From a virus, in IMG/VR virus record IMGVR_UViG_3300045256_000773, positions 1-21,551 of that record: a stretch of DNA of 21,551 nt; one strand, 5' to 3'. This document shows, piece by piece, positions 4,184 to 18,423 of this stretch. Position 1 is the stretch's first letter. Each line of letters begins with the position of its first letter. The notes under the pieces are model-generated. The model searched no databases, had not been told where the DNA came from, and was given only the letters and a program-made list of their open reading frames with translations. A program made the translations under genes and the position numbers.

Positions 4184-4217
4184 GTCCTTTTTGCCGCTGC
4201 GGGCAACGCCCAATTTG
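4184..4217 (+). promoter_or_regulatory. promoter-like element, copy 1 of a repeated family
   Basis: GTCCTTTTTG at 4184-4193 is followed after 16 bases by CCAATTTG (4210-4217), which resembles the Bacteroidota -33 TTTG and -7 TAnnTTTG pair. The start codon at 4238 lies 21 bases after the -7 box, leaving a short leader. The same arrangement recurs at 4923, 13095, 17430 and 18389. Confidence 0.6.
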
Positions 4218-4237
4218 GCGGAAAATCGTTTCCCGGT

Positions 4238-4639
4238 ATGCTTCGCCTGCTTCCCCTGCTGCTCAACGTGGTACGGCATCCAGCCGTAACCAACCCGCGC
4301 CAGTATTTCGGGCTGTGGGTGGCGGTCTGTGCCGTCATCGGGTTTGGGCTGGGGTGGTACCTCCAGCACCGGCGGTACGTGGAATGCCGCGACGAGCGGA
4401 CCGGCCTGCTCCGCGACGCCCTCCGCCACCAGCGAACCGCCGACTCGCTCCAATTCGCGGGCCAACTGGCCGCGCGCGACCTTCAACTTGCCAAACACCG
4501 TGACACCATCACCGACCTCCGCGAACAGGCTGCTCGCGACAGCCTACGCCACCTTTCTGAGCTTCAGTCTGTGCGGGCAATCAATGCCTACATCCACGCT
4601 GGCCGACAGCGCGGCCAGCGTCAGGGAGTACGTCCGTAA
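4238..4639 (+). CDS. membrane-anchored coiled-coil protein, i-spanin-like
   Basis: I chose the ATG at 4238 because a terminator and a promoter-like element lie just upstream, even though the frame is open further left. The 133-residue product has one membrane span at about residues 23-42 (YFGLWVAVCAVIGFGLGWYL). A charged helical region of about 70 residues rich in R, D, L and A follows, predicted to form a coiled coil. This short-anchor-plus-coil layout resembles inner-membrane spanins (Rz type), which fuse inner and outer membranes during lysis. The next gene overlaps its last 56 bases in the +1 frame. No sequence homology is claimed; the function is inferred from topology and from a lysis enzyme lying 4 kb downstream. 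Confidence 0.6.
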   Translation: MLRLLPLLLNVVRHPAVTNPRQYFGLWVAVCAVIGFGLGWYLQHRRYVECRDERTGLLRDALRHQRTADSLQFAGQLAARDLQLAKHRDTITDLREQAARDSLRHLSELQSVRAINAYIHAGRQRGQRQGVRP

Positions 4640-4919
4640 CGCCAACGCCATCCTCGACTCGCTGACGCGGTTTGAGTTTACCAAGCAGCGGTACCATGCC
4701 CTGCTTGGCGACTACTCGGCCAGCATCACGGCGCGCGTGGCGCTCACGGCCAACCTGAGCCAGGCCCGCACCGACCAGGCCGCGAGCGCGGCCCGGCTCA
4801 CCATCGCGGAAACGTCCCTTGGCCAGCAGCGCCGGAAACGGCGGTGGAGCCAGGTGGAAAACTGGCTGTGGCGAGCGGGGGCGAGCTACTGGCTCTACCG
4901 GCAGTTTCGGGGACGGTAA
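4584..4919 (+). CDS. coiled-coil protein overlapping the spanin-like gene
   Basis: A 111-residue protein from the ATG at 4584, in the +1 frame relative to the preceding gene. It is helical and A/R/L/S-rich (about residues 12-85), with a tryptophan-rich basic C-terminus (WSQVENWLWRAGASYWLYRQF). A GTG at 4500 would add a hydrophobic leader (RLLATAYATFLSFSLC) that looks like a signal sequence, but its residue before Cys is Leu, which is poor for a lipobox. It may be an outer-membrane spanin partner, or the displaced continuation of the upstream coil after a frameshift. Its stop codon sits in the loop of the terminator at 4911. Confidence 0.5.
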   Translation: MPTSTLADSAASVREYVRNANAILDSLTRFEFTKQRYHALLGDYSASITARVALTANLSQARTDQAASAARLTIAETSLGQQRRKRRWSQVENWLWRAGASYWLYRQFRGR

Positions 4920-4931
4920 ACCGTCCTTTTT
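4911..4931 (+). terminator. terminator with the stop codon in its loop
   Basis: GGACGG pairs with CCGTCC (6 GC-rich bp) around the loop TAAA and is followed by five Ts. The TAA stop of the preceding gene is the first three loop bases. The 3' arm and T-run also form the -33 part of the promoter-like element at 4923. Confidence 0.65.
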
Positions 4932-4957
4932 GGTGGTGTAGCACTGCGCGATGTTTG
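4923..4957 (+). promoter_or_regulatory. promoter-like element, copy 2
   Basis: GTCCTTTTTG at 4923-4932, then 17 bases, then GATGTTTG at 4950-4957. The start codon of the next gene (4982) lies 25 bases after the -7-like box. It overlaps the terminator at 4911-4931, so the site could end one transcript and start the next. Confidence 0.55.
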
Positions 4958-4981
4958 AAGTACAATAATAACCCAACACGC

Positions 4982-5290
4982 ATGCCCAAGCAGGTAATCA
5001 AGCGGCGGGCGGCTTTTGCCGACATCCACCAGGACACCCGAGGCGGGCTGCCGCACCTGTTTGCGGTGAAGTACCGCAAGAAAGACGGCTCCATCGGCTA
5101 CAAGCCCAACGTGAGCAAGTCGCTACGGCGGGTGGCCGGGCCGGGTGGGTACCGGGGCAACGTGAACCAAAACCACGTGCTGCTGCTCGAAAACCACGAC
5201 CTGCCGGTGAATCACCCCAACCGGCATTTCGAGATTTTGATCGACCTGCTGGTGGAGTACAACGGCATGGTGGTCGATCACACGGTTTAG
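4982..5290 (+). CDS. small hypothetical protein upstream of the portal
   Basis: A 102-residue protein from the ATG at 4982, chosen because the promoter-like element ends 25 bases upstream. The N-terminus is basic (KQVIKRRAAFADIHQDTRGG), followed by a beta-rich part (LPHLFAVKYRKKDGS) and a C-terminal segment with LIDLLVEYNGMVVDH. I do not recognise it. It is the first gene of the portal transcription unit and lies in the same reading frame as the portal, separated from it by the 12-base repeat. It is possibly a structural or regulatory head gene, by position only. Confidence 0.6.
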   Translation: MPKQVIKRRAAFADIHQDTRGGLPHLFAVKYRKKDGSIGYKPNVSKSLRRVAGPGGYRGNVNQNHVLLLENHDLPVNHPNRHFEILIDLLVEYNGMVVDHTV

Positions 5291-5298
5291 CGGGCCGC

Positions 5299-5334
5299 AA
5301 TGACGCTGTAAATGACACTGTAACTGACGCTGTA
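5299..5334 (+). repeat. three tandem 12-base repeats ending one base before the portal start
   Basis: Units AATGACGCTGTA, AATGACACTGTA and ACTGACGCTGTA run head to tail. In the portal's frame they read ATG ACG CTG TAA, ATG ACA CTG TAA, then CTG ACG CTG TAC leading into the portal ATG at 5336. They are two mini-ORFs of Met-Thr-Leu-stop and a third copy that has lost both its ATG and its stop. They may act in translational reinitiation or be replication slippage. Confidence 0.75.
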
Positions 5335-5335
5335 C

Positions 5336-6607
5336 ATGGTCAAGCAACTTTCCGAGACCCTCTACGTGCTCGATACGGCGGTGCTTCAGTTGACCAACCG
5401 CCGCGACGTATCCTACGGGGTAGAAGCGCGCGGAATGGCCTCGACTGCCCAGCACGTGCGGTGGGGGGCGGCTGACAACCAGCCCAACCTGATGCACCGG
5501 CTGATTCAGAACAACAACCAGGTGCGGGCGCAACTGGAAAGCGCCCGCGACATGATTTACGGGTCGGGGCTGGGTTTTTTTCGCCGCGTGAACGAGAACG
5601 GCCAAGTGCGGCTCGACCCGTTTTCGGACGCTCGGCTCGAAGACTGGATGTGGGAAACGGGCCTCCAGAATTACTGCATCGCGGCCATCAACCAACGGGT
5701 GGACGCCGCCAACCACTTCACCCGCTTCGAGTGGGACCCGGCCAAACGCTGGTACCACCTGGAAATTTCCGACGCCTTCGTGACGCGCATCGCCCTGCCC
5801 GAAGGCGGTCGGATCACCCACTACTGCACGAACCCCTACTTCGGCGAAGGGCGGAGCTACGATGACAAAGCCACCGAGCGCCTCCCGGCCTTCGACCGCC
5901 GCAACCCCGAGGCCAACCAGGTGGAAACCGTGACCATCCTCCACTCGAAGGAGGAAATTCCCGGCCAGCCCTTCTACGCGTTCCCCTCGTGGTGGTGCGC
6001 CCAGGAGTGGATCGAACTGGCCAACCTGATCCCAACGTTTCACAAATCGGGCATCACCAACGGGTACAACATCAAGTACCTGATCCGAATGCCGCAGGAC
6101 TACTTCGACAAAGAAGGCAACCGCACCGCCGACGAGAAGTCGGTGAAAAAGAAGTGGGGGGATTTCTCCGACAACCTGAGCAACTGGCTGGCGGGCAAGA
6201 AGAACGTCAACAAAACGATGCTCGTGAAGTACCTGCGCGGCAGCGACGGCAAGATGCTCGACAACGTGGACGTGATTCCGCTGAAAAACGAGATGAGCGA
6301 CGACGCCTACGCCCGCGTGTGGGAAATGGCCGGGGTGAGCATCGCCAACTCGATGGGCATCCTGCCCACGCTGGCGGGGGTGAACCCTGGCAAGGGCAAC
6401 GATTCGGGCAGCCAGATTCGGGTGATGGCCGACTACCAGCAGCACTTCCGGACGCCCGTGCACCGGCACCTGGTGACCGAGCCGATCCAGCACGCCCTGC
6501 GCGCGATGGGCTACCGCGACGTGGTGCCGCTCTTCAAAGAAGTACAAATCACCACCCTCGACGCCAACCCCACCGGGGCGCAGGCCGTCGTCAACTCCGG
6601 TAGCTGA
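5336..6607 (+). CDS. phage portal protein
   Basis: A 423-residue protein with the look of a portal, the dodecameric ring through which DNA enters the head. An N-terminal helical region includes NNNQVRAQLESARDMIYGSG. A long mixed core contains FPSWWCAQEWIELANLIPTF near residue 216. The C-terminal third carries the features I associate with Bacteroidota phage portals: SNSMGILPTLAG-like wing or stem residues, GNDSGSQIRVMADYQQH, and a closing TTLDANPTG. The stop overlaps the next start (TGATG). It has the usual length for the family. No terminase or capsid gene lies next to it in this window. Confidence 0.75.
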   Translation: MVKQLSETLYVLDTAVLQLTNRRDVSYGVEARGMASTAQHVRWGAADNQPNLMHRLIQNNNQVRAQLESARDMIYGSGLGFFRRVNENGQVRLDPFSDARLEDWMWETGLQNYCIAAINQRVDAANHFTRFEWDPAKRWYHLEISDAFVTRIALPEGGRITHYCTNPYFGEGRSYDDKATERLPAFDRRNPEANQVETVTILHSKEEIPGQPFYAFPSWWCAQEWIELANLIPTFHKSGITNGYNIKYLIRMPQDYFDKEGNRTADEKSVKKKWGDFSDNLSNWLAGKKNVNKTMLVKYLRGSDGKMLDNVDVIPLKNEMSDDAYARVWEMAGVSIANSMGILPTLAGVNPGKGNDSGSQIRVMADYQQHFRTPVHRHLVTEPIQHALRAMGYRDVVPLFKEVQITTLDANPTGAQAVVNSGS

Positions 6608-7581
6608 TGCTCGTGACCCTCGACGTGCTGAAGGCCCAACTCGGGGGCATTCAGACCAAACTCGACTTCCGGACGGTGGAACCGTTTGTGAAAAACACCG
6701 AGCGGCGGTTTCGCCAGGAAATCGGCGAAGCCCTCTACGCGTGGCTGGCGGAGATGACGACTCCAGCCGACGGCGACGAATCCGACCTGCTCGACCTGGC
6801 CCGTGGCGTGGTGGCGTGGCGGGCTTACGACCTGGCGCTGCCGCACCTGAAAATCCGGGTGGGTGACCTCGGGCTGATGAAAGCCCAGCCCAGCGGCACG
6901 GTGGCCGTGACGAAGTGGGAATACGTGGACACGCGCGAGGCGACGCTGGCGATGGCCGACGCCTGCCTCGAGGAGTTTCACGGGCTGCTCGACCGCATGG
7001 AGCCAGCCGCCTGGACCGGCTCCGATGAATTCAAAGCCCGCCAGCGGCAGTACTTCCGCAGCGCGGGCGAACTGGCCCGCTACGCGCCGCTGGTGGGGCG
7101 CAACGCCCGGCTCTTCGCGCAACTGCTCACCTACGTGGAGCGGGCCGAAGAGTTGTACCTGCTGCCGCTCGTGACCGAGGGCGTGGACGACCTGCTGAAG
7201 GACAAACTCGAAAACCGCCAGCCGCTCACGACGGCGGAAGCGGCGGTACTGGAGCGAATCCGGAAGGCGTTGGCACCGCTGGCGCTCTTCGAAGCCTACC
7301 CGTACCTGCCGCTCCAAATGGACGAGAAGGGCCTGGCCGAAAGCCGCTCGAAAGACGGGGTGCGCGAAGAACTCAAAGCGGGCGAAGGGCAGATGAACGC
7401 CCAGCGCCGCGCCCTCTACAACGACGGCCAACTGTACCTGGCCCGCCTGCGCCGGTACCTCGACCAGGTGGCCTCGGCCACGGTGTTTGCGAGCTACTTC
7501 GCGGCCAACCAAACGACCGACGACGAACCCGGAGGAGCGCCTCCCGACGATTTTACCGATAAACCCCACGTGGTGTTATGA
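6607..7581 (+). CDS. DUF6712-like protein, probable head-tail connector with internal duplication
   Basis: A 324-residue, mostly helical protein resembling the DUF6712 family found after portals in Bacteroidota phages. It appears to consist of two related halves. LLDLARGVVAWRAYDLALPHL and GLMKAQPSG in the first half correspond to VLERIRKALAPLALFEAYPYL and GLAESRSKD in the second, each followed by a long helix. A duplicated helical adaptor fits a neck or connector role next to the portal, but this is inference. The tail is acidic and disordered. It starts in the portal stop (TGATG) and ends in an ATGA overlap. Confidence 0.65.
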   Translation: MLVTLDVLKAQLGGIQTKLDFRTVEPFVKNTERRFRQEIGEALYAWLAEMTTPADGDESDLLDLARGVVAWRAYDLALPHLKIRVGDLGLMKAQPSGTVAVTKWEYVDTREATLAMADACLEEFHGLLDRMEPAAWTGSDEFKARQRQYFRSAGELARYAPLVGRNARLFAQLLTYVERAEELYLLPLVTEGVDDLLKDKLENRQPLTTAEAAVLERIRKALAPLALFEAYPYLPLQMDEKGLAESRSKDGVREELKAGEGQMNAQRRALYNDGQLYLARLRRYLDQVASATVFASYFAANQTTDDEPGGAPPDDFTDKPHVVL

Positions 7582-8378
7582 GAACAGCATCCCAGGCCGC
7601 AGGCCAACCCACAGCTACAAATGCCAAAACCATCCAACTCAACGGCAAGGCGCGCGAAAATGCCGAACTGGAGGCCCGTCGTCAGCAACTGGCCGAGCAG
7701 GAGGAAGAGTTGAAACGCCAGCGGGAGGAACTCGCCCAGCAGGAAGCCCAGGCGGTGGAAGCCGCCCGACGGCGGAAGGAAGCCGAACTGGAGGAACTGC
7801 GCACCGACGCCGAAAATTTCCGCCGCTCGGCCCGCGAGGTGGACGACGAGACCGAGAAAAAAACCTACCTGCGTTTTGCCGCCGACGCCGAACGCCAGGC
7901 TGCCGAACTGGCCCGTGAGTTGGGCGTGGTGGTGGAAGGCGAACTGCTCTCGACGGAGGAGCCGCGCGCCTCATGGCTGGCGCGCAACCACGGCGTGGTG
8001 GCGCTGCTCCAGGTGGCGTTTATCAGCGCGATCCTGTGGCTGTGCTACGCCGAATTTCAGCACTACCACGACTACATCCAGGAGGTGAACAAGACGATGC
8101 CCGCCGAAGTGCAGATGCAGCCCTACGACGTGACGAGCATCCAGAAGTTCTTTTTCGAGAAACTCGTGCAGTTCAGCGACCTGCCCGTGGCGCTGCTCAT
8201 CTGCATCCTGGTGGTACCCTTCGTCGGTTTTTACGTCCTTCCCATCGTGCGGAGCAGGAAGGATTTTTACACCGAATTCTACGAAGACCTCTCCCCGTGG
8301 CAACGATCCGTCATTTCAACCGCCTTTGTGTTGGGCTTGCTCTTGTTTGCGGTGCTGTCGCACTTGGTCAAGCCGTAA
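7578..8378 (+). CDS. coiled-coil membrane protein with three transmembrane segments
   Basis: A 266-residue protein. Residues 22-118 are a highly charged E/R/A-rich coiled coil, followed by hydrophobic segments at about 139-160, 202-224 and 243-262. I do not recognise the family. The position directly before the endolysin suggests a lysis or envelope role (holin-like, or anchoring the lysis complex), although a coil this long is unusual for a holin. Its last 82 bases are overlapped by the endolysin frame if the GTG at 8297 is used. Coupled to the previous gene by ATGA. Confidence 0.65.
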   Translation: MRTASQAAGQPTATNAKTIQLNGKARENAELEARRQQLAEQEEELKRQREELAQQEAQAVEAARRRKEAELEELRTDAENFRRSAREVDDETEKKTYLRFAADAERQAAELARELGVVVEGELLSTEEPRASWLARNHGVVALLQVAFISAILWLCYAEFQHYHDYIQEVNKTMPAEVQMQPYDVTSIQKFFFEKLVQFSDLPVALLICILVVPFVGFYVLPIVRSRKDFYTEFYEDLSPWQRSVISTAFVLGLLLFAVLSHLVKP

Positions 8379-8968
8379 GGCCTCCGGAGCCGCCTCCGCT
8401 GGTGAGCACCGACGAGCAGCGCCTGCGCGAGGCGATTTTCGCCACGGCGCAGAGCCAGTTGCACGTGCGCGAGCGCACCAACCGCAACGACCACCCGCAG
8501 ATTGTGGAATACAACCGGGTGCTCGGCCTGCCTAAAAACGCCTTCTACTGCGCCTCGGGCCTGTACTGGTGCTACCGTCAGAACGGCGCGCGGGTGCCCA
8601 TTCCAGGTCCGGGCAGCGTGGCCAACTGGTTTCGCGACCCGGCCAAACTGGTGTGGAAGCGGGGCGGGCGGGGCAACCAGCGAAGCGGCCCGAAGCCACA
8701 GTTGATGGATGCCGTGAGCCTGTACACGAGCCACGTGGAAGGGCTGGCCCAAACCACCTGGGACCCCGACGCCGACCGAATCCGGACCATCGGGTTCAAC
8801 ACAACTGGCGGTACAGGCCGGGGTGGGGTGTACCTGGTGACGCGGCGCTTTGACCGCGACCGCATCAAGGCCGTGGCCAATCACCTGACGCCCTACCTGA
8901 AAGCCCAGCGGGAGGCGGTTAATAAGACCGTAGAAGAGACGCAGAAGAGTTTAAAAGACACTCGATGA
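8297..8968 (+). CDS. CHAP/NlpC-like peptidoglycan hydrolase (endolysin)
   Basis: The catalytic domain begins around STDEQRLREAIFATAQSQLHVRE. It carries the Cys nucleophile in NAFYCASGLYWCYRQNG (Cys85 from GTG 8297) and the His in TSHVEGLA (His146), followed by GFNTTGGTGRGGVYLVTRR. That order is typical of CHAP-like endopeptidases that cut peptide bonds in peptidoglycan. With GTG 8297 (223 residues) the N-terminus is a convincing Sec signal: ATIRHFNR, a hydrophobic stretch LCVGLALVCGAVALG, then QA before RPPEPPP. That stretch overlaps the third membrane segment of the upstream gene in another frame, so it could be a shadow. GTG 8402 would give a 188-residue enzyme without a signal. The stop overlaps the next gene (ATGA). 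Confidence 0.75.
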   Translation: MATIRHFNRLCVGLALVCGAVALGQAVRPPEPPPLVSTDEQRLREAIFATAQSQLHVRERTNRNDHPQIVEYNRVLGLPKNAFYCASGLYWCYRQNGARVPIPGPGSVANWFRDPAKLVWKRGGRGNQRSGPKPQLMDAVSLYTSHVEGLAQTTWDPDADRIRTIGFNTTGGTGRGGVYLVTRRFDRDRIKAVANHLTPYLKAQREAVNKTVEETQKSLKDTR

Positions 8969-9330
8969 GAACCACGGAATTCAATTTTCGCGCCAACCAG
9001 GGCGATACGTTCCGGGCCACGCTGCTGGTTGAAACCACGTTCTCGCTGACGGGGAAAACGGGCAAAATGCAGGTGCGGGCGGGCGAAAACTACCCGGTGG
9101 CGCTGGAGTTTACGACGGCCAACGCGACCATGACGCTGGGCGCACTCGTGACGCGCACGGTGAACGGCGCGCAGCGGGAATTCCGCGAAGTAGCCCTCTA
9201 CCAAGCGGCCAGCACGATGGCGGGGGTGAAGAGCAACAAGTACCAGTACGATCTCCAGTTTGCCGACGGCGCTGACACAACGACGCTGCTCCGGGGCAGC
9301 TTCGACGTGAAGCCACAGATTACCCGCTGA
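8965..9330 (+). CDS. small beta-rich structural protein, BppU-N-like
   Basis: A 121-residue protein beginning with FNFRANQGDTFRATLLVE, followed by LTGKTGKMQVR, an LEFTTANATMTLG strand and YQYDLQFADG near the end. This pattern (a GDT strand, 'tries to be a polynomial in a field', then YDL and a closing strand) recurs in N-terminal domains of baseplate upper proteins and in small tail accessory proteins. It probably forms a beta-sandwich in the virion tail or baseplate. It begins a block of tail and fibre genes. Confidence 0.6.
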   Translation: MRTTEFNFRANQGDTFRATLLVETTFSLTGKTGKMQVRAGENYPVALEFTTANATMTLGALVTRTVNGAQREFREVALYQAASTMAGVKSNKYQYDLQFADGADTTTLLRGSFDVKPQITR

Positions 9331-9334
9331 CCCG

Positions 9335-9676
9335 ATGAACGTAACCATTCTGGCCGAAGTGTACGAGACCGTCGTGATTCTGGCCGAGCCGGAACCGGCG
9401 GTGGAAGTCGTCGTGGCCGAGAACGGGACAGTGGTGCGGCAACTCAGCGGGGTAACAATCACCGATCTGCCGCTCGTGGTGCAGGCCATCGGGCAGACGC
9501 AGTTCAACATTTTCACCCTGCCACCCGAACGGCACTTTCTGCTCATCAATGGCCTGGAACACTACGCGCCCGACCACTACACCATCGAGCAGCAGGGCGG
9601 CAACGTGCGCCTGGTGTGGGGCAGTGCCCACGTGCTGACGACTTCCATGAAACTGATTTTCCGAACTTTTAACTGA
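9335..9676 (+). CDS. small beta-rich tail/fibre-associated protein
   Basis: A 113-residue protein with an N-terminal Val/Glu-rich beta region and a C-terminal module LINGLEHYAPDHYTIEQQGG ... VRLVW. That module resembles the 'NG..Y..D(Y)T' beta segment repeated in phage fibre and baseplate proteins. It lies four bases after the previous stop and eight bases before the next start, in the same unit as the fibre genes. The exact role is unknown. Confidence 0.55.
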   Translation: MNVTILAEVYETVVILAEPEPAVEVVVAENGTVVRQLSGVTITDLPLVVQAIGQTQFNIFTLPPERHFLLINGLEHYAPDHYTIEQQGGNVRLVWGSAHVLTTSMKLIFRTFN

Positions 9677-9683
9677 CAAAGCC

Positions 9684-10472
9684 ATGCCCGTACAAGCGGA
9701 ACAAATTGTAGGCAAACTGTTGCCGGGTCAGGTGGACTTTTCCACCGCTAGTGCCAACGCTGACCCGGCTACCCGTGGGTGGACCACCCAGCAAATTCAG
9801 GCGTTGCTCAACGCAATGGATGCCAAAAACAGTGTGCGGGTTGCCACGAACGTAAACGTAAACCTGGCCGCGCCGGGCGCGAACATTGACAGCACCGCAA
9901 TGACGGTGGGGCAGGATTTTCTCGCTTTTGGCCAAACCAACGGCGCGCAGAATGGCATTTACGTGTGGAACGGTGCGGCGGTACCCGCTACGCGCCGCAC
10001 CGATGCCGACGGTAGCCCGGAAGTGACGGCGGGGATGAACTTCCTGGTGTCGGAGGGCACCTGGGGCAACCGGCTGTTTTCGCTCGACACCGACGACCCG
10101 ATTACGCTCGACACGACCTCGCTGACCTTTACCAGCAAGTCGATTTTCTCCATCGCGGTGCCGACGCTGCTTAACAAGTGGATGCCCTGCCTGAATACCA
10201 CCAACGACGGCGACAAGGTGACCAACACCGTGGTAGCGGCCACGCCAGCCAGTGCCAGTTTTGTGGCCCTGTTCATCGAAGGGGTGATGGAGGAAATTGC
10301 CGATGGCAACGCCAACCGAACCCAGAAAGCGGCCTACGTAAGCGGCGACAACGGGGTAACGGCCCGCAACTGGAACCAGATTCAGGTAAACGACACCATT
10401 CACTGGAACGGCTCGAAGGCGGGCTACCAACTCAAGAATACCTGGCGGGCATCCCTGCTGTTTAACGTCTAA
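9684..10472 (+). CDS. tail fibre-like structural protein
   Basis: A 262-residue protein. Residues of about 51-155 follow a widespread phage fibre or structural module: VRVATNVNVNLAAPG, then a FLAFGQTNGAQNGIYVWNGAA segment trimmed to the NGIYVWNG core, RRTDADGSPEVTAGMNFLV, and LDTTSLTFTSKS. The remainder is a distinct C-terminal domain with TRNWNQIQVNDTIHWNGS-like beta content. It is likely part of a fibre or baseplate. Of the four small fibre-type genes in this block it has the clearest homology pattern. Confidence 0.65.
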   Translation: MPVQAEQIVGKLLPGQVDFSTASANADPATRGWTTQQIQALLNAMDAKNSVRVATNVNVNLAAPGANIDSTAMTVGQDFLAFGQTNGAQNGIYVWNGAAVPATRRTDADGSPEVTAGMNFLVSEGTWGNRLFSLDTDDPITLDTTSLTFTSKSIFSIAVPTLLNKWMPCLNTTNDGDKVTNTVVAATPASASFVALFIEGVMEEIADGNANRTQKAAYVSGDNGVTARNWNQIQVNDTIHWNGSKAGYQLKNTWRASLLFNV

Positions 10473-10477
10473 ACGCG

Positions 10478-11041: not shown

Positions 11042-11046
11042 ACGCC

Positions 11047-11340: not shown

Positions 11341-11349
11341 CGCGCCCCC

Positions 11350-12249
11350 ATGCAAACCATTTACCTGGCCGGGCAGCGGTATGATCTGCCCGGCACCTGG
11401 GCGGAAGTGCCCGCCGACCGGCTGCCCAAACTGCTGGAATTGCTCTTCGTGAAGCCCGAAGGGGGCGAAACGTACCACGAATTGCTCCGCACTACCCTCG
11501 GCCTGAGCAAGCGGGCCTGGACGAAGATGGCCTGCCACTACTTCAGCCCGCACCTGCCGCCCGGCACCCGTCGGCGCAACGCCGAAACGCTGGCGCAGGT
11601 GCTCGGCCTGATTGAGTGGATGTGGCGGGACGAACTCACCCGGCAGCCGTTTGCGGCGGTGCGAGCTGGGGGGCGCGACTACCTGCTGCCCGACGAGCAA
11701 CTGCGCACGGTGGCGTTTGGCGAACTGACCGACGCGTACATCCACGCGCAGGCGTTCATCAAGCAACTCGAACCCGGCGAGGGACGGCTGCACCTGCTGC
11801 TGGCCACGCTGTGCCGACCCGAACGCAGCAACCCGGTGCTCGGCCCAGCCTACACCGCCAGCCCTGACTGGAACGGCGACCGGCGCGAACCCTACAACGA
11901 GCACGCCGTGCGCCACCGGGCCGACGCGATGGCCGCGCTCGAACCGCGCGAAAAGGTGGCCGTGCTGATGTACTTCCTGGGCAGCCTGAAGGAATTCCTG
12001 GCGACCTACGACACCTTCGACGCCGACACGCCCGAAGGCTCGGTGTACGAAGACGACTATCCAGGGCAGGGGTTTATCAAAAACCAACACCTGCTGGCTG
12101 AAAAGGGGGTTTTTGGCACGCTGAAGCAAACGAAGGAGGCCAACGCCCACGAGGTGTTTCTCTTCCTCGAGGAGCACAAAAAGGACCTCGACGCCCAAAT
12201 TGAAGCCGAAGAGCGGGCGCAGGACGCTCGACGACACCACCACAACTAA
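11350..12249 (+). CDS. hypothetical phage protein, possible tail-assembly chaperone
   Basis: A 299-residue, largely helical protein. It starts with a short beta hairpin (TIYLAGQRYDLPGTWAEVP) and continues with amphipathic helices. FGELTDAYIHAQAFIKQLE and LLATLCRPE recall proteins that sit ahead of tape-measure genes in Bacteroidota phages. The C-terminus is a charged helix ending in a His-rich stretch. An assembly-chaperone role is suggested by that similarity, but here the tape measure lies about 7 kb away, so I hold it loosely. No frameshift site is obvious. Confidence 0.55.
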   Translation: MQTIYLAGQRYDLPGTWAEVPADRLPKLLELLFVKPEGGETYHELLRTTLGLSKRAWTKMACHYFSPHLPPGTRRRNAETLAQVLGLIEWMWRDELTRQPFAAVRAGGRDYLLPDEQLRTVAFGELTDAYIHAQAFIKQLEPGEGRLHLLLATLCRPERSNPVLGPAYTASPDWNGDRREPYNEHAVRHRADAMAALEPREKVAVLMYFLGSLKEFLATYDTFDADTPEGSVYEDDYPGQGFIKNQHLLAEKGVFGTLKQTKEANAHEVFLFLEEHKKDLDAQIEAEERAQDARRHHHN

Positions 12250-12260
12250 CGTGACTGGCC

Positions 12261-12716
12261 ATGACACCAACCGAACGATTCTGGGCGTACTTCAGGGAAA
12301 TTGCCGCCGTGGACCTGGGCGGTCTTTACTGCCAGATGTCGGATGCCGACCGGCTTGACCGGCTCACGGCCGACAGCGTCAGTTCCGACGTGTTTCCGGG
12401 CATTTTCTTCATGCGGCCCAAGCAGCAGGGCTACGACGAAAACAGCGGCCTGCTGTGCATTCAGTTCGACGCGCTGTTTTACGTCTTTGTGAAGGGAGAC
12501 CTGGCCGATTACGAATCGCAGGACGCGGCCTACCACACGGCGGAACTGCTGATTACACAACTGCTGCGGGTGCTCTGGAACGATTCGAAGGAGTACAAAA
12601 TCTTGTTCAGCCTGGCCAGCTACCGGGCCGAACCGGTGGCCTACCAACTGATGGACGCCTGCTGGGGCTACGAAGTTCGGCTGCGCGTGGGGCTACCCGT
12701 GAACGATTTATTCTGA
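12261..12716 (+). CDS. hypothetical phage structural protein
   Basis: A 151-residue protein that I do not recognise. It has mixed alpha/beta content: a helical N-terminus, a strand region FPGIFFMRPKQQG, strands CIQFDALFYVFVKGD, a helix with AELLITQLLRVLW and a final beta segment GYEVRLRVGLPV. That organisation is like tail-terminator or neck proteins of about this size, but no motif proves it. It lies between the putative assembly protein and the small membrane genes, with an 11-base gap upstream and three bases before the next start. Confidence 0.55.
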   Translation: MTPTERFWAYFREIAAVDLGGLYCQMSDADRLDRLTADSVSSDVFPGIFFMRPKQQGYDENSGLLCIQFDALFYVFVKGDLADYESQDAAYHTAELLITQLLRVLWNDSKEYKILFSLASYRAEPVAYQLMDACWGYEVRLRVGLPVNDLF

Positions 12717-12719
12717 GAA

Positions 12720-12908
12720 ATGGACAACGTGTGGAGTAACTTGCTGGGGCAAATTCCGCTCTCGCTCGTGCTGGGGTGGTTCATGGCGCAGTTTTTCAAG
12801 CGCCTGGACAAGTACATCGACCGCACCGAGCAACTCAGCGACCGGGTGCTCAAACTCGAAACCCGGGAGGAAATGAAGGAAAAACTCGAATCGAAGGGCA
12901 ATGGGTAA
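12720..12908 (+). CDS. small BhlA/UviB-like membrane protein
   Basis: A 62-residue protein with an N-terminal membrane span (about residues 10-26, LLGQIPLSLVLGWFMAQFF). A charged helix follows (DKYIDRTEQLSDRVLKLETREE) that probably forms a coiled coil. The same layout is seen in BhlA/UviB-type holin-like proteins. Its end overlaps the start of the next gene by eight bases. Holin-related function is an inference from topology. Confidence 0.5.
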   Translation: MDNVWSNLLGQIPLSLVLGWFMAQFFKRLDKYIDRTEQLSDRVLKLETREEMKEKLESKGNG

Positions 12909-13083
12909 AATGGTGCTTTTCTGGCTGGTTTGGCTGCTGCTGGCACCGCTCGTGCTGGTGGTGTTTCTGCTTTCCGACCTGGTGAACGGGCGGTTTCGCC
13001 ACCCTACGTTCTGGGTGAAACTGGGCTTGGTGCGGCGGAGCGTTTGGGAGCAGATGGGGTTCGACGTTCGGAAGCGCCGCTGA
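12901..13083 (+). CDS. very small single-span membrane protein
   Basis: A 60-residue protein with one strong N-terminal membrane span (MVLFWLVWLLLAPLVLVVFL) and a basic cytoplasmic-type tail ending VRKRR. It overlaps the preceding membrane gene by eight bases and is the last gene before the 63-base gap with the third promoter-like element. Function unknown. It may pair with the preceding protein in lysis or envelope interaction. Confidence 0.5.
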   Translation: MGKMVLFWLVWLLLAPLVLVVFLLSDLVNGRFRHPTFWVKLGLVRRSVWEQMGFDVRKRR

Positions 13084-13094
13084 GCGGTACTGCC

Positions 13095-13129
13095 GTCCTT
13101 TTTTCGGCTTCAACGCTGCTCGATTTTTC
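13095..13129 (+). promoter_or_regulatory. promoter-like element, copy 3
   Basis: GTCCTTTTTT at 13095-13104, then GATTTTTC at 13122-13129, 27 bases from start to start as in copies 2 and 4. The start codon at 13147 lies 18 bases further on. The -7-like part overlaps a small hairpin, GATTTT-TCGG-AAAATC (13122-13137). Confidence 0.55.
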
Positions 13130-13146
13130 GGAAAATCTGCGTTCCA

Positions 13147-15198
13147 ATGATCGATTTTCCGGCATCCGGCCTCGTTTTCTACCCGCTCAAATTCAGTCGC
13201 AACAAGCTCGTGCATCGCATCGAGCCTGCCGACCCTGGCCTGACCGACCGCGACGGCCTGAAGTATTTTCTGGAAATTCAGGTGCCGGAATACCCGATGG
13301 CTCCAACCCTGGTGTCGCTGCCGCGCGCCGAAGGCCGGGAAACACCCGCCAGCGAGGTGGGCGGGGCGGTGACGCTCGAAGGGGCCGAATTCACCTACAA
13401 CCAGCGCAACGGCAAACTGGACGGCCAACTGACTTACGCCAAGCCGATGGCGGGACAAACCACCGGCAGCGTGGTGGTGACGCAAACCATGCCCTTCCGC
13501 CTGCGTGAACTGGTCCAGGGGGGTACTCCGCCCGTAAACACGGACCTGACCAACCCGATGCAGTGGGTGGTGAAAGCGGGCCTGAGCAACGAGGATTTTG
13601 TCGCATTTGGCGAAACATTCTGGCACCAACACCAGGCTGAGCGGCGGCGATTCCTGACCTGGCAACCCGACGGCAAGACGGTGGGTTGGCAGCAGGAAGA
13701 GTACCTGCATTTTCTCGTCAACTTCACGCCCTCGCCGCAGCAGGTGCTCCTGCGGGTGGTGTTCTACCACCGCGACGGCTCGGTAACGCCCGCCCAGACC
13801 AAAGCCACGCTAAACGCCGTCGGGTTGAACCAGGTGGTGTGTTTTCCAGTCGGGCCAGCGGTGCTCGGCGCGCCCGACACGGCCCTGCGCTACGAAGTGT
13901 GGTTGAGCAACGAGCAGAACCGGCGCTTCACGGAAACCCGCACTTATTGGCTCGACCAGGCGTACCAGCAGCAGGAGCGGGCCATTCTGTTCGTCAATTC
14001 GCTGGGCGGATGGGACACGCTGCGGCTGGTGGGGCGGGCCACCGAAACGCTGAAGGTGACCCAGACCGTGGCTGAGCGCGACCGGCCCGCCGACGCGCCG
14101 CTCGACTGGCCGAGTACGCTGGTGGTGAGCACCGAGGGCGAACGTGAAATTCAGGTAGCCACGGGCTATTTCCGCCGCGACGCGAAGGAGTGGCGGCGCT
14201 ACCTGGACGAACTGCTCCTGAGCGAGCAGATGTACCTCGTGACCGACAAAGGGCACGTGCCGCTGCGCCGGGTGACGAACGCCCTGGTGGACGCGCGCGA
14301 CGAGCCGGGCCTGGTGAGCGAAACGCTGACGTTTGTGCGGGACCTGACCGTGCAAAACTACAGCGACCTGCCGCCCACCGAGCCGACGCCGACCCGCCCC
14401 ACGGCCTGGCAGGGCGTGAGCTACCAGCACGTGCTCGACGCGTGGGGCAAGCGGGTGGGGTTGCTCCGCGCGGCGCGGCTGCGGAAAATCTACGCCGACG
14501 ACGGGACGCCCTTCAAGCCGCTCACCTACAAACCCAACGCGCAGGGTGATCCGGACTACGAGTTTCCGAGGCCCGCGCCCAACGTGGTGCCGGGCAGCAC
14601 GCCCTACCCAAGCGCCCTGCTGGAGCGAACGGGCAGTTTCAACCGCTCGAACTGCCCGGCGGGGTCGGAGGGTGGCCCGGCGACCATCGTGATTGCCGCA
14701 GGGCGCTACGGGGGCGAGGCCCCCGGCGACGCCGACGCCCTGGCCGCTGCGGAAGCCGCCAGCCTCGATACCCAGGCCTACGCCGACCAATGGGGCACCT
14801 GCCTGGTGAACGAGCACTACACCTGGAGCGTACCCGCCAACCACTGGCACTACCGGGCCAACCGACCGGCCCGGATTGGGCTGTACAACCCCTCGTCGCA
14901 GTGGGGCAACCTGCAATCGCTCCCGGCGGGCAGCTACGCGTTTCCGCCGGGAGCGAACGACCTGGATTTCCCGATTTCTGACGCGCTGTTCTACTTCTAC
15001 GTGTACGGAACTCCGGGTGCGCAGGTGAAGGTGGACGTGTTTCGGAACGGAACGCTGCGCAAGTCAGTGACGTACACGGTGAGCAGCGAGGGCTTCGACA
15101 ACCATTTTCTGTTCGACAATCAGGGGTCAGGCGAGCCGTTTGCGCTCTACAACCCGGCCAGCGGCGACCGATTCTTTTTCAAAATCACGGACCTATGA
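13147..15198 (+). CDS. large tail/baseplate protein with DUF5977 domain
   Basis: A 683-residue beta-rich protein. About residues 485-552 match the DUF5977 pattern: FNRSNCPAGSEGG, AAGRYGG, a D/A-rich helix and a closing AYADQWGTC with paired Cys. That domain is frequent in large secreted or virion proteins of Bacteroidota and their phages. The first 450 residues are beta-sandwich-like with many short strands. The C-terminal 130 residues include NHWHYRANRPARIGLYNP and a FYFYVYGTPGAQVKVDVF strand region. It is probably a tail-tip or host-binding protein. It opens a transcription unit behind copy 3 of the promoter-like element and ends in an ATGA overlap. Confidence 0.65.
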   Translation: MIDFPASGLVFYPLKFSRNKLVHRIEPADPGLTDRDGLKYFLEIQVPEYPMAPTLVSLPRAEGRETPASEVGGAVTLEGAEFTYNQRNGKLDGQLTYAKPMAGQTTGSVVVTQTMPFRLRELVQGGTPPVNTDLTNPMQWVVKAGLSNEDFVAFGETFWHQHQAERRRFLTWQPDGKTVGWQQEEYLHFLVNFTPSPQQVLLRVVFYHRDGSVTPAQTKATLNAVGLNQVVCFPVGPAVLGAPDTALRYEVWLSNEQNRRFTETRTYWLDQAYQQQERAILFVNSLGGWDTLRLVGRATETLKVTQTVAERDRPADAPLDWPSTLVVSTEGEREIQVATGYFRRDAKEWRRYLDELLLSEQMYLVTDKGHVPLRRVTNALVDARDEPGLVSETLTFVRDLTVQNYSDLPPTEPTPTRPTAWQGVSYQHVLDAWGKRVGLLRAARLRKIYADDGTPFKPLTYKPNAQGDPDYEFPRPAPNVVPGSTPYPSALLERTGSFNRSNCPAGSEGGPATIVIAAGRYGGEAPGDADALAAAEAASLDTQAYADQWGTCLVNEHYTWSVPANHWHYRANRPARIGLYNPSSQWGNLQSLPAGSYAFPPGANDLDFPISDALFYFYVYGTPGAQVKVDVFRNGTLRKSVTYTVSSEGFDNHFLFDNQGSGEPFALYNPASGDRFFFKITDL

Positions 15199-16619
15199 GC
15201 CTGAGCATCCGACTCAACGGGCAGGTGGTGGACCTCGCGCCCAACCCGCGCGTGGCCTTCGACCTGTTGAACCCGTTTCTGACTTACGACAGCATTCCGG
15301 GCAGCCGGGCCGACATGCCCACCCTGCCGCTCACGCCGCGCAACCAGCGGGTGCTCCGGTACTGGCACGAAGCCCAGGGCGGCAGCCGGTTGCCGGAATT
15401 GGTGTGCGACCATTTTTTCAACGGCGAACTCATCCGGAGTGGCTATTACCTGGTGACCGAAGCCAGCGACACGGGCTACTCGGGCGGGTTCACGGACAAA
15501 CTGGGTGATTTTTTCGGCGATTACCAGCGCGAGCCGCTGGGCAACCTCGACCTCGGGACGCTGCCCGTAGCCCTGCCCGCCAGCGGCGAAGTGTACGATG
15601 GCGCTCGCCTGGCCTATTGCCTGCCGACGATTGTGAACCCCGATTACTACGGCACCAACGGCGGGAGCATCGGGTACGGCGGGCGGGTAAACGACTACGC
15701 CAGCGGCGCTTACGTGGTGGGGGGAACTCCGGGTGCATCGCCGAAAGTGCCGATGGTGGCCATGACGTACCTGCTGCACCGCCTGGCCGTGCTGACGGAA
15801 ACGACCATCGACGGCGACCTGTTCACCCACCCGGTGTGGAGCAAGCTGCTGGTGTACAACACCCGCGCCACCGATGGAGCGGCAACGATGGCCGTGGCCC
15901 GGCACCTGCCCGAACTGACCCTGGAGCAGTTGCTGATTGAACTGCGCAAACTGCCCAACCTGGCGCTGAAGTTTTTCCCGACCGAGAAGCGCCTGCGGAT
16001 CGACTTCCGGGAAGCGGACATGGCCAAGCCGACGGCGCTCGACTGGAGCGCGAAGGCCGTGGCGGGGGGCATCAAAACGCGGGAGCAAAACGCCCGGCTG
16101 CAATTGGGCTACGAACTCGACTCGGGCGATGCCCTCATGAAAGACAAACCGGAGGTGCTCCGCGATTACCTGACGCCCGAAACGGGCGAAGGAACGGGCA
16201 TTGCCAAACTGACGAGCAAGTTTTCGACGCTGCTGGTGGATGGGGCCACCGGCCTGGCCACGGCCAAGCAAGTGGGCGTGACGGAGCAGTTTGGGCAGGG
16301 GGCCAGCAAATTCGCGCCCAGGCTGCTGTTCTGGCACGGGGTGACGGGCGGGCTGCCGCGCGCGCTGCCGACGCTCGGCGGGCAGTCGCTGCACTGGAAC
16401 GGGGCGGACGGCCTGGCGGCACGCTGCTGGGCGCGCACCGAGGCCAACCGGAAGGGGCGGTTTTACCTGAAGAAAGACCTCATCCTGACCGAAACTGACT
16501 TGGCTCGGTTGGATTTTACGGCGAAGGTTCACATCGACGGGATGGACTACGAGGTGGCCCAGCTCTCACCGCAACTCCCCATCAAGGCGGCTGTTCCGGC
16601 GCTGCTCATCAGCCGATGA
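15195..16619 (+). CDS. tail/baseplate hub-like protein
   Basis: A 474-residue protein that starts with a short beta strand region and FDLLNPFLTYDSIPGSRADMP. This opening resembles Bacteroidota phage proteins that I would place at the tail tip. The middle has a hub-like pattern: LTLEQLLIELRKLPNLALKFFPTEKRLRIDF, a helix followed by strands. The C-terminus returns to beta (AKVHIDGMDYEVAQL). It couples to the 683-residue protein by ATGA. Its last 54 bases are overlapped by the convergent minus-strand gene that ends at 16566. A baseplate or Tal-like role is inferred. Confidence 0.55.
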   Translation: MSLSIRLNGQVVDLAPNPRVAFDLLNPFLTYDSIPGSRADMPTLPLTPRNQRVLRYWHEAQGGSRLPELVCDHFFNGELIRSGYYLVTEASDTGYSGGFTDKLGDFFGDYQREPLGNLDLGTLPVALPASGEVYDGARLAYCLPTIVNPDYYGTNGGSIGYGGRVNDYASGAYVVGGTPGASPKVPMVAMTYLLHRLAVLTETTIDGDLFTHPVWSKLLVYNTRATDGAATMAVARHLPELTLEQLLIELRKLPNLALKFFPTEKRLRIDFREADMAKPTALDWSAKAVAGGIKTREQNARLQLGYELDSGDALMKDKPEVLRDYLTPETGEGTGIAKLTSKFSTLLVDGATGLATAKQVGVTEQFGQGASKFAPRLLFWHGVTGGLPRALPTLGGQSLHWNGADGLAARCWARTEANRKGRFYLKKDLILTETDLARLDFTAKVHIDGMDYEVAQLSPQLPIKAAVPALLISR

Positions 16620-16823
16620 TGTATCGAGGCGCGCCAGCGAATCGAGCGCGGCCTGGTATTCTTCCTGGTAGCGCTGGAGTTCGTTCTGAACGCCATCGGC
16701 TTCGTACCGGGTGTTGCGGTAGGGGGAATCGGGCAGGGGGGTGTTGGGCGGTTGCCAGCCGGAGAAGTGGAGTACTGCCACGCCAATTACGACGATGGCG
16801 GCCGCTGTGAGGAGACGTTTCAT
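16566..16823 (-). CDS. small membrane-anchored coiled-coil protein of the minus-strand island
   Basis: An 85-residue protein read from the ATG at 16823 (minus strand). Residues 1-18 form a signal anchor (MKRLLTAAAIVVIGVAVL); a proline-rich linker (QPPNTPLPDSP) and a charged helix with ELQRYQEEYQAALDSLARL follow. No lipobox Cys is present. Its ATG overlaps the stop of the upstream minus-strand gene (TCAT at 16820-16823), so the two are coupled. It probably faces the periplasm. In an island that has its own promoter, a superinfection-exclusion or other host-altering role is plausible but unproven. Confidence 0.65.
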   Translation of the reverse strand: MKRLLTAAAIVVIGVAVLHFSGWQPPNTPLPDSPYRNTRYEADGVQNELQRYQEEYQAALDSLARLDTSSADEQRRNSRLDGELR

Positions 16824-17122
16824 TCGGGTGGTTTGAGTTGGGAATGGTAATACCAGTTGGAAGCATGACGCACGATTTTGAACAACTCCGTGGCCGGGTG
16901 CTCCTGGCCGAACGAATCGTACCATTCGAGCAGGGTAGCCGTATTGGTTTGTCGGGTGTGGATGCCCATCGGGAGCGTGTTCACATAATCCTCAAGGGCT
17001 TCGGTTGACGCAAAGCGCCTCACCCTCACGACGCCATAGGGGTGGCGGCAATGAACGATGAATTCAATGTCGGGTTGGGACGACTGGTTTTTGGTCAGCA
17101 GGAAGCGGGGCGCTTTGGGCAT
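16820..17122 (-). CDS. second part of a split or frameshifted minus-strand gene
   Basis: From ATG 17122 (minus) this gives 100 residues: a strand region FLLTKNQSSQPDIEFIVHC, then a charged beta/helix part with TEALEDYVNTLP and LLEWYDSFGQ, ending KIVRHASNWYYHSQL. It overlaps the other part (17064-17354) in a different frame, and together they read like one protein of about 175 residues. The junction is at the CCCC tract (plus-strand GGGG, 17107-17110); one base less would fuse them. The fold and function are not recognised. Confidence 0.55.
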   Translation of the reverse strand: MPKAPRFLLTKNQSSQPDIEFIVHCRHPYGVVRVRRFASTEALEDYVNTLPMGIHTRQTNTATLLEWYDSFGQEHPATELFKIVRHASNWYYHSQLKPPE

Positions 17123-17354
17123 CGGCGGGCAGGCGCGCCACGCAGGTAAAATGCACCTTCCCGTCGGGGGAGTCTGGCTCCTGAATTGCGTACAGGCACC
17201 ACTCGTTACCTTCCTCGGTGACGAAGTAAGGTACCAGCAACTGCTGACGAATGAAGACGGGAATGCGGCGGTTTTTCCATTTCTGGCCGCGCCGGGAAAT
17301 TCGGGCAAAGACTGCGCGAGCAGCCGAAATGCCGGTTTGGAAGTCAGTAAGCAT
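17064..17354 (-). CDS. first part of a split or frameshifted minus-strand gene
   Basis: From ATG 17354 (minus), 96 residues. A helical, basic opening (RAVFARISRRGQKWKNRR) is followed by strands PVFIRQQLLVPYFVT and EWCLYAIQEPDSPDG and a KVHFTCVARL strand. The last 20 or so residues (SAPLPADQKPVVPTRH) are proline-rich and look like out-of-frame reading of the next part. A perfect host-type -7 box (TATATTTG) lies about 45 bases upstream, so this is the first gene of the island. Function unknown. Confidence 0.55.
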   Translation of the reverse strand: MLTDFQTGISAARAVFARISRRGQKWKNRRIPVFIRQQLLVPYFVTEEGNEWCLYAIQEPDSPDGKVHFTCVARLPADAQSAPLPADQKPVVPTRH

Positions 17355-17399
17355 GATGTAGTTGCCGTTTTTTTAACCTGCTGGCCACCGCAGGCAGAG

Positions 17400-17407
17400 C
17401 AAATATA
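17400..17407 (-). promoter_or_regulatory. host-type -7 box of the minus-strand promoter
   Basis: Read on the minus strand, TATATTTG is a perfect match to the Bacteroidota TAnnTTTG. A TTTG lies 13 bases further upstream (17421-17424), which is closer than the usual -33 spacing. The predicted start near 17393 would leave a leader of about 40 bases to the ATG at 17354. It is back to back with promoter-like copy 4. Confidence 0.55.
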
Positions 17408-17429
17408 GCAGAGAGGGGTACAAATAATT

Positions 17430-17464
17430 GTCCTTTTTGCCGAACGGGAAGCGGGTCAGGTTTG
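17430..17464 (+). promoter_or_regulatory. promoter-like element, copy 4
   Basis: GTCCTTTTTG at 17430-17439, then 17 bases, then CAGGTTTG at 17457-17464. The methylase ATG at 17491 lies 27 bases after it. An imperfect hairpin (GGGTACAA-ATAA-TTGTCC with one bulge) precedes the T-run. Confidence 0.6.
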
Positions 17465-17490
17465 AAGCTCATTTACGCTTCATCAACAAC

Positions 17491-18291
17491 ATGACCAAAG
17501 TACTTCCACTGCGAACGCCGATTACCTACTACGGTGGGAAGCAGAACATGCTGGGCGCGATCCTGCCTAAGATTCCCGAGCACAAGGTGTACGTCGAGCC
17601 GTTCTTCGGCGGCGGGGCGGTGTTTTTCGCCAAACCTCCGAGCGAGGCCGAAGTGGTGAACGACATCAACAACCGGCTGATTACCTTCTACAAGGTGCTG
17701 AAGTACGATTTCGACGAGTTGCAGCGGCGCGTGGACGAGACCTTCCACAGCCGCGCCCAACATCGCGATGCCGACGGCGAGTACGTGGGAGGGGTAGACG
17801 AAATCCGGGACCCACTGGCAATGGCCTGGGCGGTGTGGGTGCAAACCAACATGAGTTTCGGCAGCGCCATCGGCGGCGGGTTTGGCTACGACCGGGGCGG
17901 GAAGTGCGCCACGAAGGTGTTCAACAAGAAGAATTCCTTCACCGAGGTGTACCAGCAACGCATGAAGCGGGTGACCATCGAGAGCTACGACGTGCTGAAG
18001 GTGATTCGGGCCTACGACGGTCCGGAGGCGTTTTTCTACCTCGATCCGCCCTACGTGAGCAGCAACCAGGGCCACTACCAGGGCTACACCGCCGACGACT
18101 TCCACCGCCTGCTCGACGCCTGCGCGGGGATGCAGGGCAAGTTTCTGCTCAGCAGCTACCCCGAATCCCAATTGCTCCAGTACCGCCAAAAATGCGGGTG
18201 GTCGACGGAGGACGTCGAGAAAACGCTGGCCGTGGACGGGCGGCGAAAATCGGCGAAGAAGAAGGTGGAGTGCCTGACGTGGAATTACTGA
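17491..18291 (+). CDS. D12-class N6-adenine DNA methyltransferase
   Basis: A complete 266-residue Dam-family enzyme. It has YYGGK at residues 13-17, the SAM-binding YVEPFFGGG at 34-42, a recognition-region insert of about 100 residues (roughly 75-175) and the catalytic DPPY at 185-188 with a following LSSYP. I chose ATG 17491 because the promoter-like element sits just upstream and ITYYGGK follows at the family's normal spacing. A TTG at 17428 would begin inside that element. It methylates adenine in DNA, probably against host restriction or for packaging or regulation. It lies between tail modules, separate from the first methylase at the left edge. Confidence 0.93.
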   Translation: MTKVLPLRTPITYYGGKQNMLGAILPKIPEHKVYVEPFFGGGAVFFAKPPSEAEVVNDINNRLITFYKVLKYDFDELQRRVDETFHSRAQHRDADGEYVGGVDEIRDPLAMAWAVWVQTNMSFGSAIGGGFGYDRGGKCATKVFNKKNSFTEVYQQRMKRVTIESYDVLKVIRAYDGPEAFFYLDPPYVSSNQGHYQGYTADDFHRLLDACAGMQGKFLLSSYPESQLLQYRQKCGWSTEDVEKTLAVDGRRKSAKKKVECLTWNY

Positions 18292-18322
18292 AGCAGCGCC
18301 AGTTGCGGCGGTGGATGCCTTC

Positions 18323-18355
18323 GATTTTGTAAGCGGACGCCGCGCGGACAAAATC
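18323..18355. repeat. inverted repeat after the second methylase
   Basis: GATTTTGT at 18323-18330 pairs with ACAAAATC at 18348-18355. The spacer carries an inner GCGG-ACG-CCGC stem. No T-run follows on either strand, so it is not a standard terminator. It may be a structured RNA or a protein-binding site. Confidence 0.4.
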
Positions 18356-18360
18356 CCCCG

Positions 18361-18388
18361 AAGCCCGATGCCGTGTGCGTCGGGCTTT
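18361..18388 (+). terminator. terminator-like hairpin with short T tail
   Basis: AAGCCCGA (18361-18368) pairs with TCGGGCTT (18380-18387). The stem extends by three more pairs to a CGTGT loop. The tail is TTTGTCCTTTCC, so the U-tract is broken. It ends the methylase unit and abuts promoter-like copy 5. Confidence 0.6.
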
Positions 18389-18423
18389 GTCCTTTCCCCT
18401 CTTGAACGACCGTCGGAAGTTCG
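18389..18423 (+). promoter_or_regulatory. promoter-like element, copy 5 (degenerate)
   Basis: GTCCTTTCCCC at 18389, then GAAGTTCG at 18416-18423, exactly 27 bases from start to start as in copies 2-4, with one mismatch in TTTG. It lies 31 bases before the GTG start at 18454. It is weaker than the other copies because the T-run is cut short. Confidence 0.4.

What the first reader, a model, noticed from the sequence alone, without database searches (positions are those of the whole stretch)
4184..18423. A repeated promoter-like element ahead of five plus-strand units
Seen: GTCCTTTTT occurs at 4184, 4923, 13095 and 17430, with a shortened GTCCTTT at 18389. Each is followed at a fixed distance (26, 27, 27, 27 and 27 bases, start to start) by CCAATTTG, GATGTTTG, GATTTTTC, CAGGTTTG or GAAGTTCG. 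A start codon then lies 18-31 bases on. One 9-mer is expected about 0.08 times on one strand of this length under equal base use, and fewer times in GC-rich DNA. Known: Bacteroidota promoters have -33 TTTG and -7 TAnnTTTG. Inference: this is a phage promoter class with an extended, unusually conserved -33 block and a relaxed -7 block. It could be read by the host sigma factor with a phage activator, or by a different sigma, and it would define the late transcription units.
Basis: partly seen in the sequence, partly recalled or inferred. Interest (0 to 1): 0.75.

Follow-up and report, generated by a model that had tools for sequence, protein, structure and literature searches.

The report
Late-gene promoter class of Bacteroidota phages
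A short, rigidly spaced DNA signal ahead of the virus-particle genes of many viruses that infect Bacteroidota bacteria looks like a phage-specific "late gene" switch, often nested inside a terminator-like hairpin; what reads it is not yet known.

Summary
GTCCTTTTT occurs four times on the + strand (0.01 expected), and all five copies have a -7-like block before a start codon.

Relatives show what it is. In 24 related records (Spirosomaceae phages, window included), GTCCTTT-N24-TTYG occurs 86 times on the late-gene strand and never on the other. Permuted boxes reach at most 9. Ten further relatives use GTCCT[A/G] at the same spacing, and cultured phages Leef and Ingeline carry it too. A blind IMG/VR scan for the leaderless form recovers this phage lineage (44/120 loci encode its portal, 0/120 control loci). 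Host genomes lack it outside prophages. Many genes start exactly 4 nt after TTYG, where Bacteroidota transcription is expected to start.

Best reading: a phage-lineage-specific late promoter. Invariant GTCCT takes the -33 slot, the sigma-A -7 block is relaxed (T-12 lost), and a phage-encoded activator is probably needed. Prophages in one host carry different box subtypes, which points to a phage-encoded reader. I did not identify it.

Unexpected: many copies sit inside a hairpin that only read-through RNA could form. There are no expression data.

The parts
4184..4217 (+). late promoter copy 1: GTCCTTT, A at 4212, TTTG 4214-4217 (gap 23); drives ORF from ATG 4238, which ends in a c2-family region
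4923..4957 (+). late promoter copy 2: GTCCTTT, GATGTTTG (gap 24); ahead of ATG 4982 (c3 family) and the portal gene 5336-6607. Same slot carries the element in many relatives
13095..13130 (+). late promoter copy 3: GTCCTTT, A at 13123, TTCG 13127-13130 (gap 25); ahead of ATG 13147 (683 aa, c11 family)
17430..17464 (+). late promoter copy 4: GTCCTTT, CAGGTTTG (gap 24); ahead of ATG 17491, a D12-class DNA adenine methylase
18389..18423 (+). late promoter copy 5: GTCCTTTCC, GAAGTTCG (gap 24); ahead of GTG 18454 and the tape-measure gene
5336..6607 (+). portal protein gene used to find relatives
17491..18291 (+). D12-class N6-adenine DNA methyltransferase gene downstream of copy 4
   Evidence: Pfam PF02086, E 3.6e-26
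17402..17409 (-). canonical Bacteroidota -7 element TATATTTG of the divergent gene; internal contrast to the relaxed late -7
18994..21549 (+). tail tape-measure gene (cut by the window end), downstream of copy 5
   Evidence: PHROG tail length tape measure, E 8.6e-43

Best explanation
GTCCTTT-N20-nAnYTTYG is the late promoter of a lineage of temperate siphoviruses of Bacteroidota. Shown by sequence: GTCCT occupies -39..-35 and the -7 element -12..-5, if transcription starts 4-5 nt after TTYG as in Flavobacterium. The -7 part keeps A-11, T-8, T-7 and G-5 of the host primary-sigma element but has lost T-12 and half of T-6, so it should be weak alone. Inferred: the host RNA polymerase with its primary sigma is brought to it by a phage-encoded factor made early, which binds GTCCT in the slot of the -33 element, much as the T4 MotA box replaces -35. 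This switches on each block of structural, lysis and methylase genes late. In many copies the promoter is nested in a hairpin whose left arm lies upstream of the start site and right arm downstream, sometimes followed by a T-run. Transcripts from upstream would fold and terminate or hide the start codon, while the promoter's own transcripts lack the left arm. This last step is inferred.
For: 86 elements on the late strand and 0 on the other; gap 24 dominant; permuted boxes at most 9; no single-base variant within GTCCT. Recurrence at orthologous slots. -7 identity with the published Bacteroidota element and its start spacing; ATG exactly 4 nt after TTYG in 12 of 76, in orthologous genes of both subtypes. 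Phage-only distribution. Blind pattern scan recovers the lineage, portal in 44/120 loci against 0/120 control loci. Two box subtypes coexist in prophages of the same host. Own-copy hairpin pairing z = -9.6 and -10.0.
Against: No transcript data of any kind. The reading factor was not found: no early protein family is shared by all element-bearing phages. Labanvirus, with a related portal, lacks the element. The A/G subtype hairpin window was the second one tried. The window's own copies show at most weak hairpins.
Confidence: 0.7

Rival explanations
1. A late promoter read by an alternative sigma factor: a phage-encoded sigma-like protein without a detectable region 2, or a host alternative sigma, with GTCCTTT as its -35 and nAnYTTYG as its -10.
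For: Rigid spacing and an invariant box are typical of two-domain sigma recognition (general knowledge).
Against: No Sigma70_r2 match in 18 phage records while the control rings in 10 of 14 genomes. The -7 half is the primary-sigma element in degraded form. A host sigma is unlikely: no host regulon, and one host carries prophages of both subtypes. A region-4-only factor is not excluded.
Confidence: 0.13
2. An ordinary host primary-sigma promoter: GTCCTTT is just a strong -33 region, and no phage factor is needed.
For: -7 resembles the host element, and copies in the window read TTTTTG at -33.
Against: Not enriched in host genomes. T-12, near-invariant in host promoters, is T in only 21 of 86. 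The AT-rich stretches at -18 and -28 are absent. Same-host prophages differ in box subtype.
Confidence: 0.1
3. Not a promoter: the copies are parts of terminators, or RNA sites for antitermination or processing, in one long late transcript.
For: Hairpins and T-runs overlap or precede many copies; a T-run lies within 30 nt upstream in 30/86 and 12/29 against 11.6% background.
Against: GTCCT lies outside the hairpin and many copies have none. The gap is rigid, the second block matches the host promoter element, and ATG falls exactly 4 nt after it in many copies.
Confidence: 0.05

Closest known systems
Bacteroidota primary-sigma (sigma-ABfr) promoter, -33 TTTG / -7 TAnnTTTG (PMC6847099)
   Same: A-11, T-8, T-7, G-5 and the 4-5 nt spacing to the start
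   Different: T-12 not conserved, T-6 half C, no AT-rich -18/-28, and an invariant GTCCT at -39..-35 in place of a weak -33; confined to phages
Phage T4 middle promoters (MotA box, sigma appropriation; PMC6755090)
   Same: Host sigma -10-type element with a phage-specific box replacing the upstream element
   Different: T4 needs an excellent -10; here -7 is relaxed. No MotA or AsiA relative was identified. The box lies at -39..-33, not centred at -30. Late rather than middle genes
Phage Mu late promoters activated by protein C (PMC4461284)
   Same: Several late units of one temperate phage switched on by one phage activator with host polymerase
   Different: No C/Mor protein identified; box and host promoter type differ
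IS10/IS50-type protection from read-through transcription (recalled, not tested)
   Same: The promoter starts inside an inverted repeat, so only read-through RNA can form the hairpin
   Different: Here repeated at many late units of a phage, sometimes with a terminator-like T-run

Membership tests
Bacteroidota primary-sigma promoter | A-11, T-8, T-7, G-5 of the -7 element | tested here: met
   Unconditioned on the second block, 162 boxes: A 72%, T 79%, T 83%, G 69% at those offsets
Bacteroidota primary-sigma promoter | near-invariant T-12 and T-6 | tested here: not met
Bacteroidota primary-sigma promoter | AT-rich motifs near -18 and -28 | tested here: not met
   AT fraction 0.40 and 0.37 in the 5-nt bins from -19 and -29
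Bacteroidota primary-sigma promoter | transcription start 4-5 nt after the -7 element | not testable with these tools
   Indirect support only: ATG exactly 4 nt after TTYG in 12 of 76
T4-type middle promoter | excellent -10 element | tested here: not met
   T-12 lost, T-6 mixed
T4-type middle promoter | MotA and AsiA encoded by the phage | tested here: inconclusive
   Not among the Pfam families listed for 144 early proteins, where only the first 25 of 35 were shown in one scan; no dedicated search
Mu-type C-activated late promoter | Mor/C-family activator encoded by the phage | tested here: inconclusive
   Not among the Pfam families listed; no dedicated search was run
phage sigma-factor promoter | sigma-70 family protein encoded by the phage | tested here: not met
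   Sigma70_r2 absent from 18 records, control positive; region-4-only proteins not tested

The most novel reading that the evidence does not exclude
One late-promoter code (GTCCT box plus relaxed -7) is conserved across the phylum in Bacteroidota siphoviruses (Duneviridae/Helgolandviridae-like phages and Spirosomaceae prophages). It is read by an undiscovered phage transcription factor of no known family. Many copies are superimposed on terminator-like hairpins, so that upstream polymerase is stopped while new, often leaderless, transcripts start from inside the hairpin.
Probability: 0.4. Interest if true: 0.85.

Novelty: new variant of a known kind. Interest (0 to 1): 0.7.

Why it matters
I found no description of how temperate Bacteroidota phages time their late genes in the open-access papers searched. 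If right, this gives a sequence code that marks late units in such phages and prophages, predicts transcription starts and leaderless mRNAs, offers a phage-only promoter as an induction reporter, and defines a target for finding the missing activator. The hairpin-nested promoter is a simple, testable way of insulating transcription units.

Tried and rejected
Early gene c26 as the universal activator: it tracks the TT subtype (16/23 against 0/10) and sits in the early operon, but it was not found in Leef or Ingeline. My idea that it is a tandem ribbon-helix-helix protein got no support from Foldseek or VIA-align.

c15 as a universal reader: present in 28 records and in Leef, but also in Labanvirus, which lacks the element. 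Fold searches of its model gave no informative match.

LuxR/GerE proteins of Ingeline and Labanvirus: no BLAST homologue in the Spirosomaceae phages.

"Element-free" relatives: first scored as lacking it, later shown to use GTCCT[A/G]. The first co-occurrence test is therefore about subtype, not presence.

Rfam scan of the window: nothing. E. coli-type promoter and generic terminator scan: at shuffle level. The search for related loci with the c26 alignment: alignment too divergent.

Full report
OBSERVATION. GTCCTTT lies at 4184, 4923, 13095, 17430 and 18389 on the + strand. GTCCTTTTT lies at four of these, where an order-3 Markov model expects 0.01. All five copies are intergenic and have an A exactly 28 nt after the first base of the box, then TTTG or TTCG at gap 23-25 and a start codon 17-30 nt further on. 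The window is the whole held record, so relatives had to decide what it means.

RELATIVES. The portal gene 5336-6607 retrieves prophages and viral contigs of Spirosoma, Dyadobacter, Runella, Rudanella, Larkinella, Siphonobacter and Rhabdobacter. Its nearest annotated relatives are portal proteins of Polaribacter phage Leef (Helgolandviridae) and Cellulophaga phage Ingeline (Duneviridae), at about 21% identity. Full or nearly full stretches of relatives were fetched and oriented.

STATISTICS. In 24 records including the window (1.03 Mb), GTCCTTT-N24-TT[TC]G occurs 86 times on the late strand and 0 times on the other. Gaps 23 and 25 give 8 and 9 on that strand, all others 0-3. The 105 arrangements of the box letters otherwise reach at most 9 on both strands together (median 2). 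No single-base change within GTCCT is found on the late strand at this spacing; the 6th and 7th bases tolerate some change. Only 3 of 86 lie well inside a long + ORF. Without any condition on the second block, the bases 28, 31, 32 and 34 nt after the box start are A 72%, T 79%, T 83% and G 69% (all). A scan of intergenic 7-mers for strand bias puts GTCCTTT first.

SECOND SUBTYPE. Ten relatives that seemed to lack the element use GTCCTA (17 against 0 on the other strand) and GTCCTG (8 against 1) at the same spacing. In two hosts both subtypes coexist in different prophages: IMG/VR taxon 2831701549 (G021 with TT, G030 with A/G) and 2882134870 (G018 with TT, G027 with A). The specificity is therefore most simply phage-encoded (inference).

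BEYOND THE CLADE. Leef and Ingeline carry the box with the same downstream layout ahead of several genes, with a laxer second block that the strict gap count largely misses (my reading of the sequences). Labanvirus does not. Of 120 loci, 44 encode a homologue of this portal, against 0 of 120 loci fetched with the one-base control box GACCTTT, and 44 against 12 hold a further same-strand element. Both scans were truncated, so absolute counts cannot be compared.

NOT A HOST REGULON. In 15 host genomes of 6-9 Mb most matches cluster in the prophage on one strand, and the rest are no more frequent than the reversed control. In 148 Bacteroidota genomes the leaderless form occurs 3 times against 12 for the reversed control, and one of the three is a known prophage.

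WHY A PROMOTER. Positions map onto the published Flavobacterium johnsoniae -7 element (T-12 A-11 H H T-8 T-7 T-6 G-5, start 4-5 nt later; PMC6847099). A-11, T-8, T-7 and G-5 are kept; T-12 is T in 21 of 86 and T-6 is C in 41 of 86. Twelve of the 76 elements with an ATG have it exactly 4 nt after TTYG, which would be +1. Most of these are starts of orthologous genes (c16, c38, c3) in different phages and both subtypes. In the methylase intergenic region the opposite strand carries a canonical TAnnTTTG in 6 of the 10 phages shown (window TATATTTG, 17402-17409), a useful internal contrast.

HAIRPIN NESTING. The segment -25..-3 pairs with +1..+33 of its own copy far better than with other copies (z = -9.6, 5000 permutations), while two flanking control comparisons give -1.6 and +3.3. 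In the A/G subtype the pairing of -28..-8 with -5..+33 gives z = -10.0; the first window tried there gave only -2.2, so this one was chosen second. Some copies are complete terminator-like structures (hairpin plus T-run), for example G005:51211, G019:30328, G020:27729 and G027:31165. Because the left arm lies upstream of the inferred start, only read-through RNA can form the hairpin. The window's own copies show at most weak pairing. Insulation from upstream transcription is my inference.

WHO READS IT. There is no sigma-70 region 2 in 18 phage records, with working controls. Early proteins show only scattered HTH, LytTR and HU hits. Family c26 (about 110 aa, early operon) tracks the TT subtype, 16/23 against 0/10. 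Other genomes carry c26; in two of them (G162, G266) two elements lie about 19-28 kb downstream on the same strand, while several other c26 loci have none nearby. c26 was not found in Leef or Ingeline, and fold searches of its model gave no informative match. It remains a candidate for the subclade only. On the portal tree the subtype label needs only two changes, so c26 and subtype are confounded with descent.

MECHANISM AND CONFIDENCE. My estimates: promoter nature about 0.9; phage-lineage-specific late promoter with a phage-encoded activator in the -33 slot about 0.7; nested read-through insulation as a real function about 0.5. T4 middle promoters (MotA box replaces -35; PMC6755090) are the closest working analogy, but those require an excellent -10, which is not the case here. 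Searches of the open-access library found no description of this element or of late promoters in such phages. Subscription papers and preprints were not searchable.

Noticed in passing
window 16609-17354 (-) with 17491-18291 (+): Two small minus-strand genes (families c34 and c31, no Pfam or PHROG match for those tested) sit divergently beside the DNA adenine methylase, with the late promoter between them, in many relatives. c31 occurred in 12 of 23 TT-subtype records and 0 of 10 others.
   Followed up: partly
window 17365-17409 (-): The leader of the divergent c34 gene carries a recurring CTGCGG..CAGCAG..AAAA..CGG pattern after the canonical TAnnTTTG in several phages; possibly a structured RNA leader. 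No Rfam match.
   Followed up: partly
window 2915-3865 (+): Homologue of a family (c36) that includes a putative amidoligase gene in related phages; its role in a phage is unclear.
   Followed up: no
window 5-787 and 17491-18291 (+): Two adenine-methylase-family genes in one 21.5 kb phage fragment (both in cluster c27 or D12 class).
   Followed up: no
c16 and c38 slots in relatives, e.g. G014:12180, G012:27213: Orthologous late genes begin exactly 4 nt after the -7 block in different phages, predicting leaderless mRNAs.
   Followed up: yes
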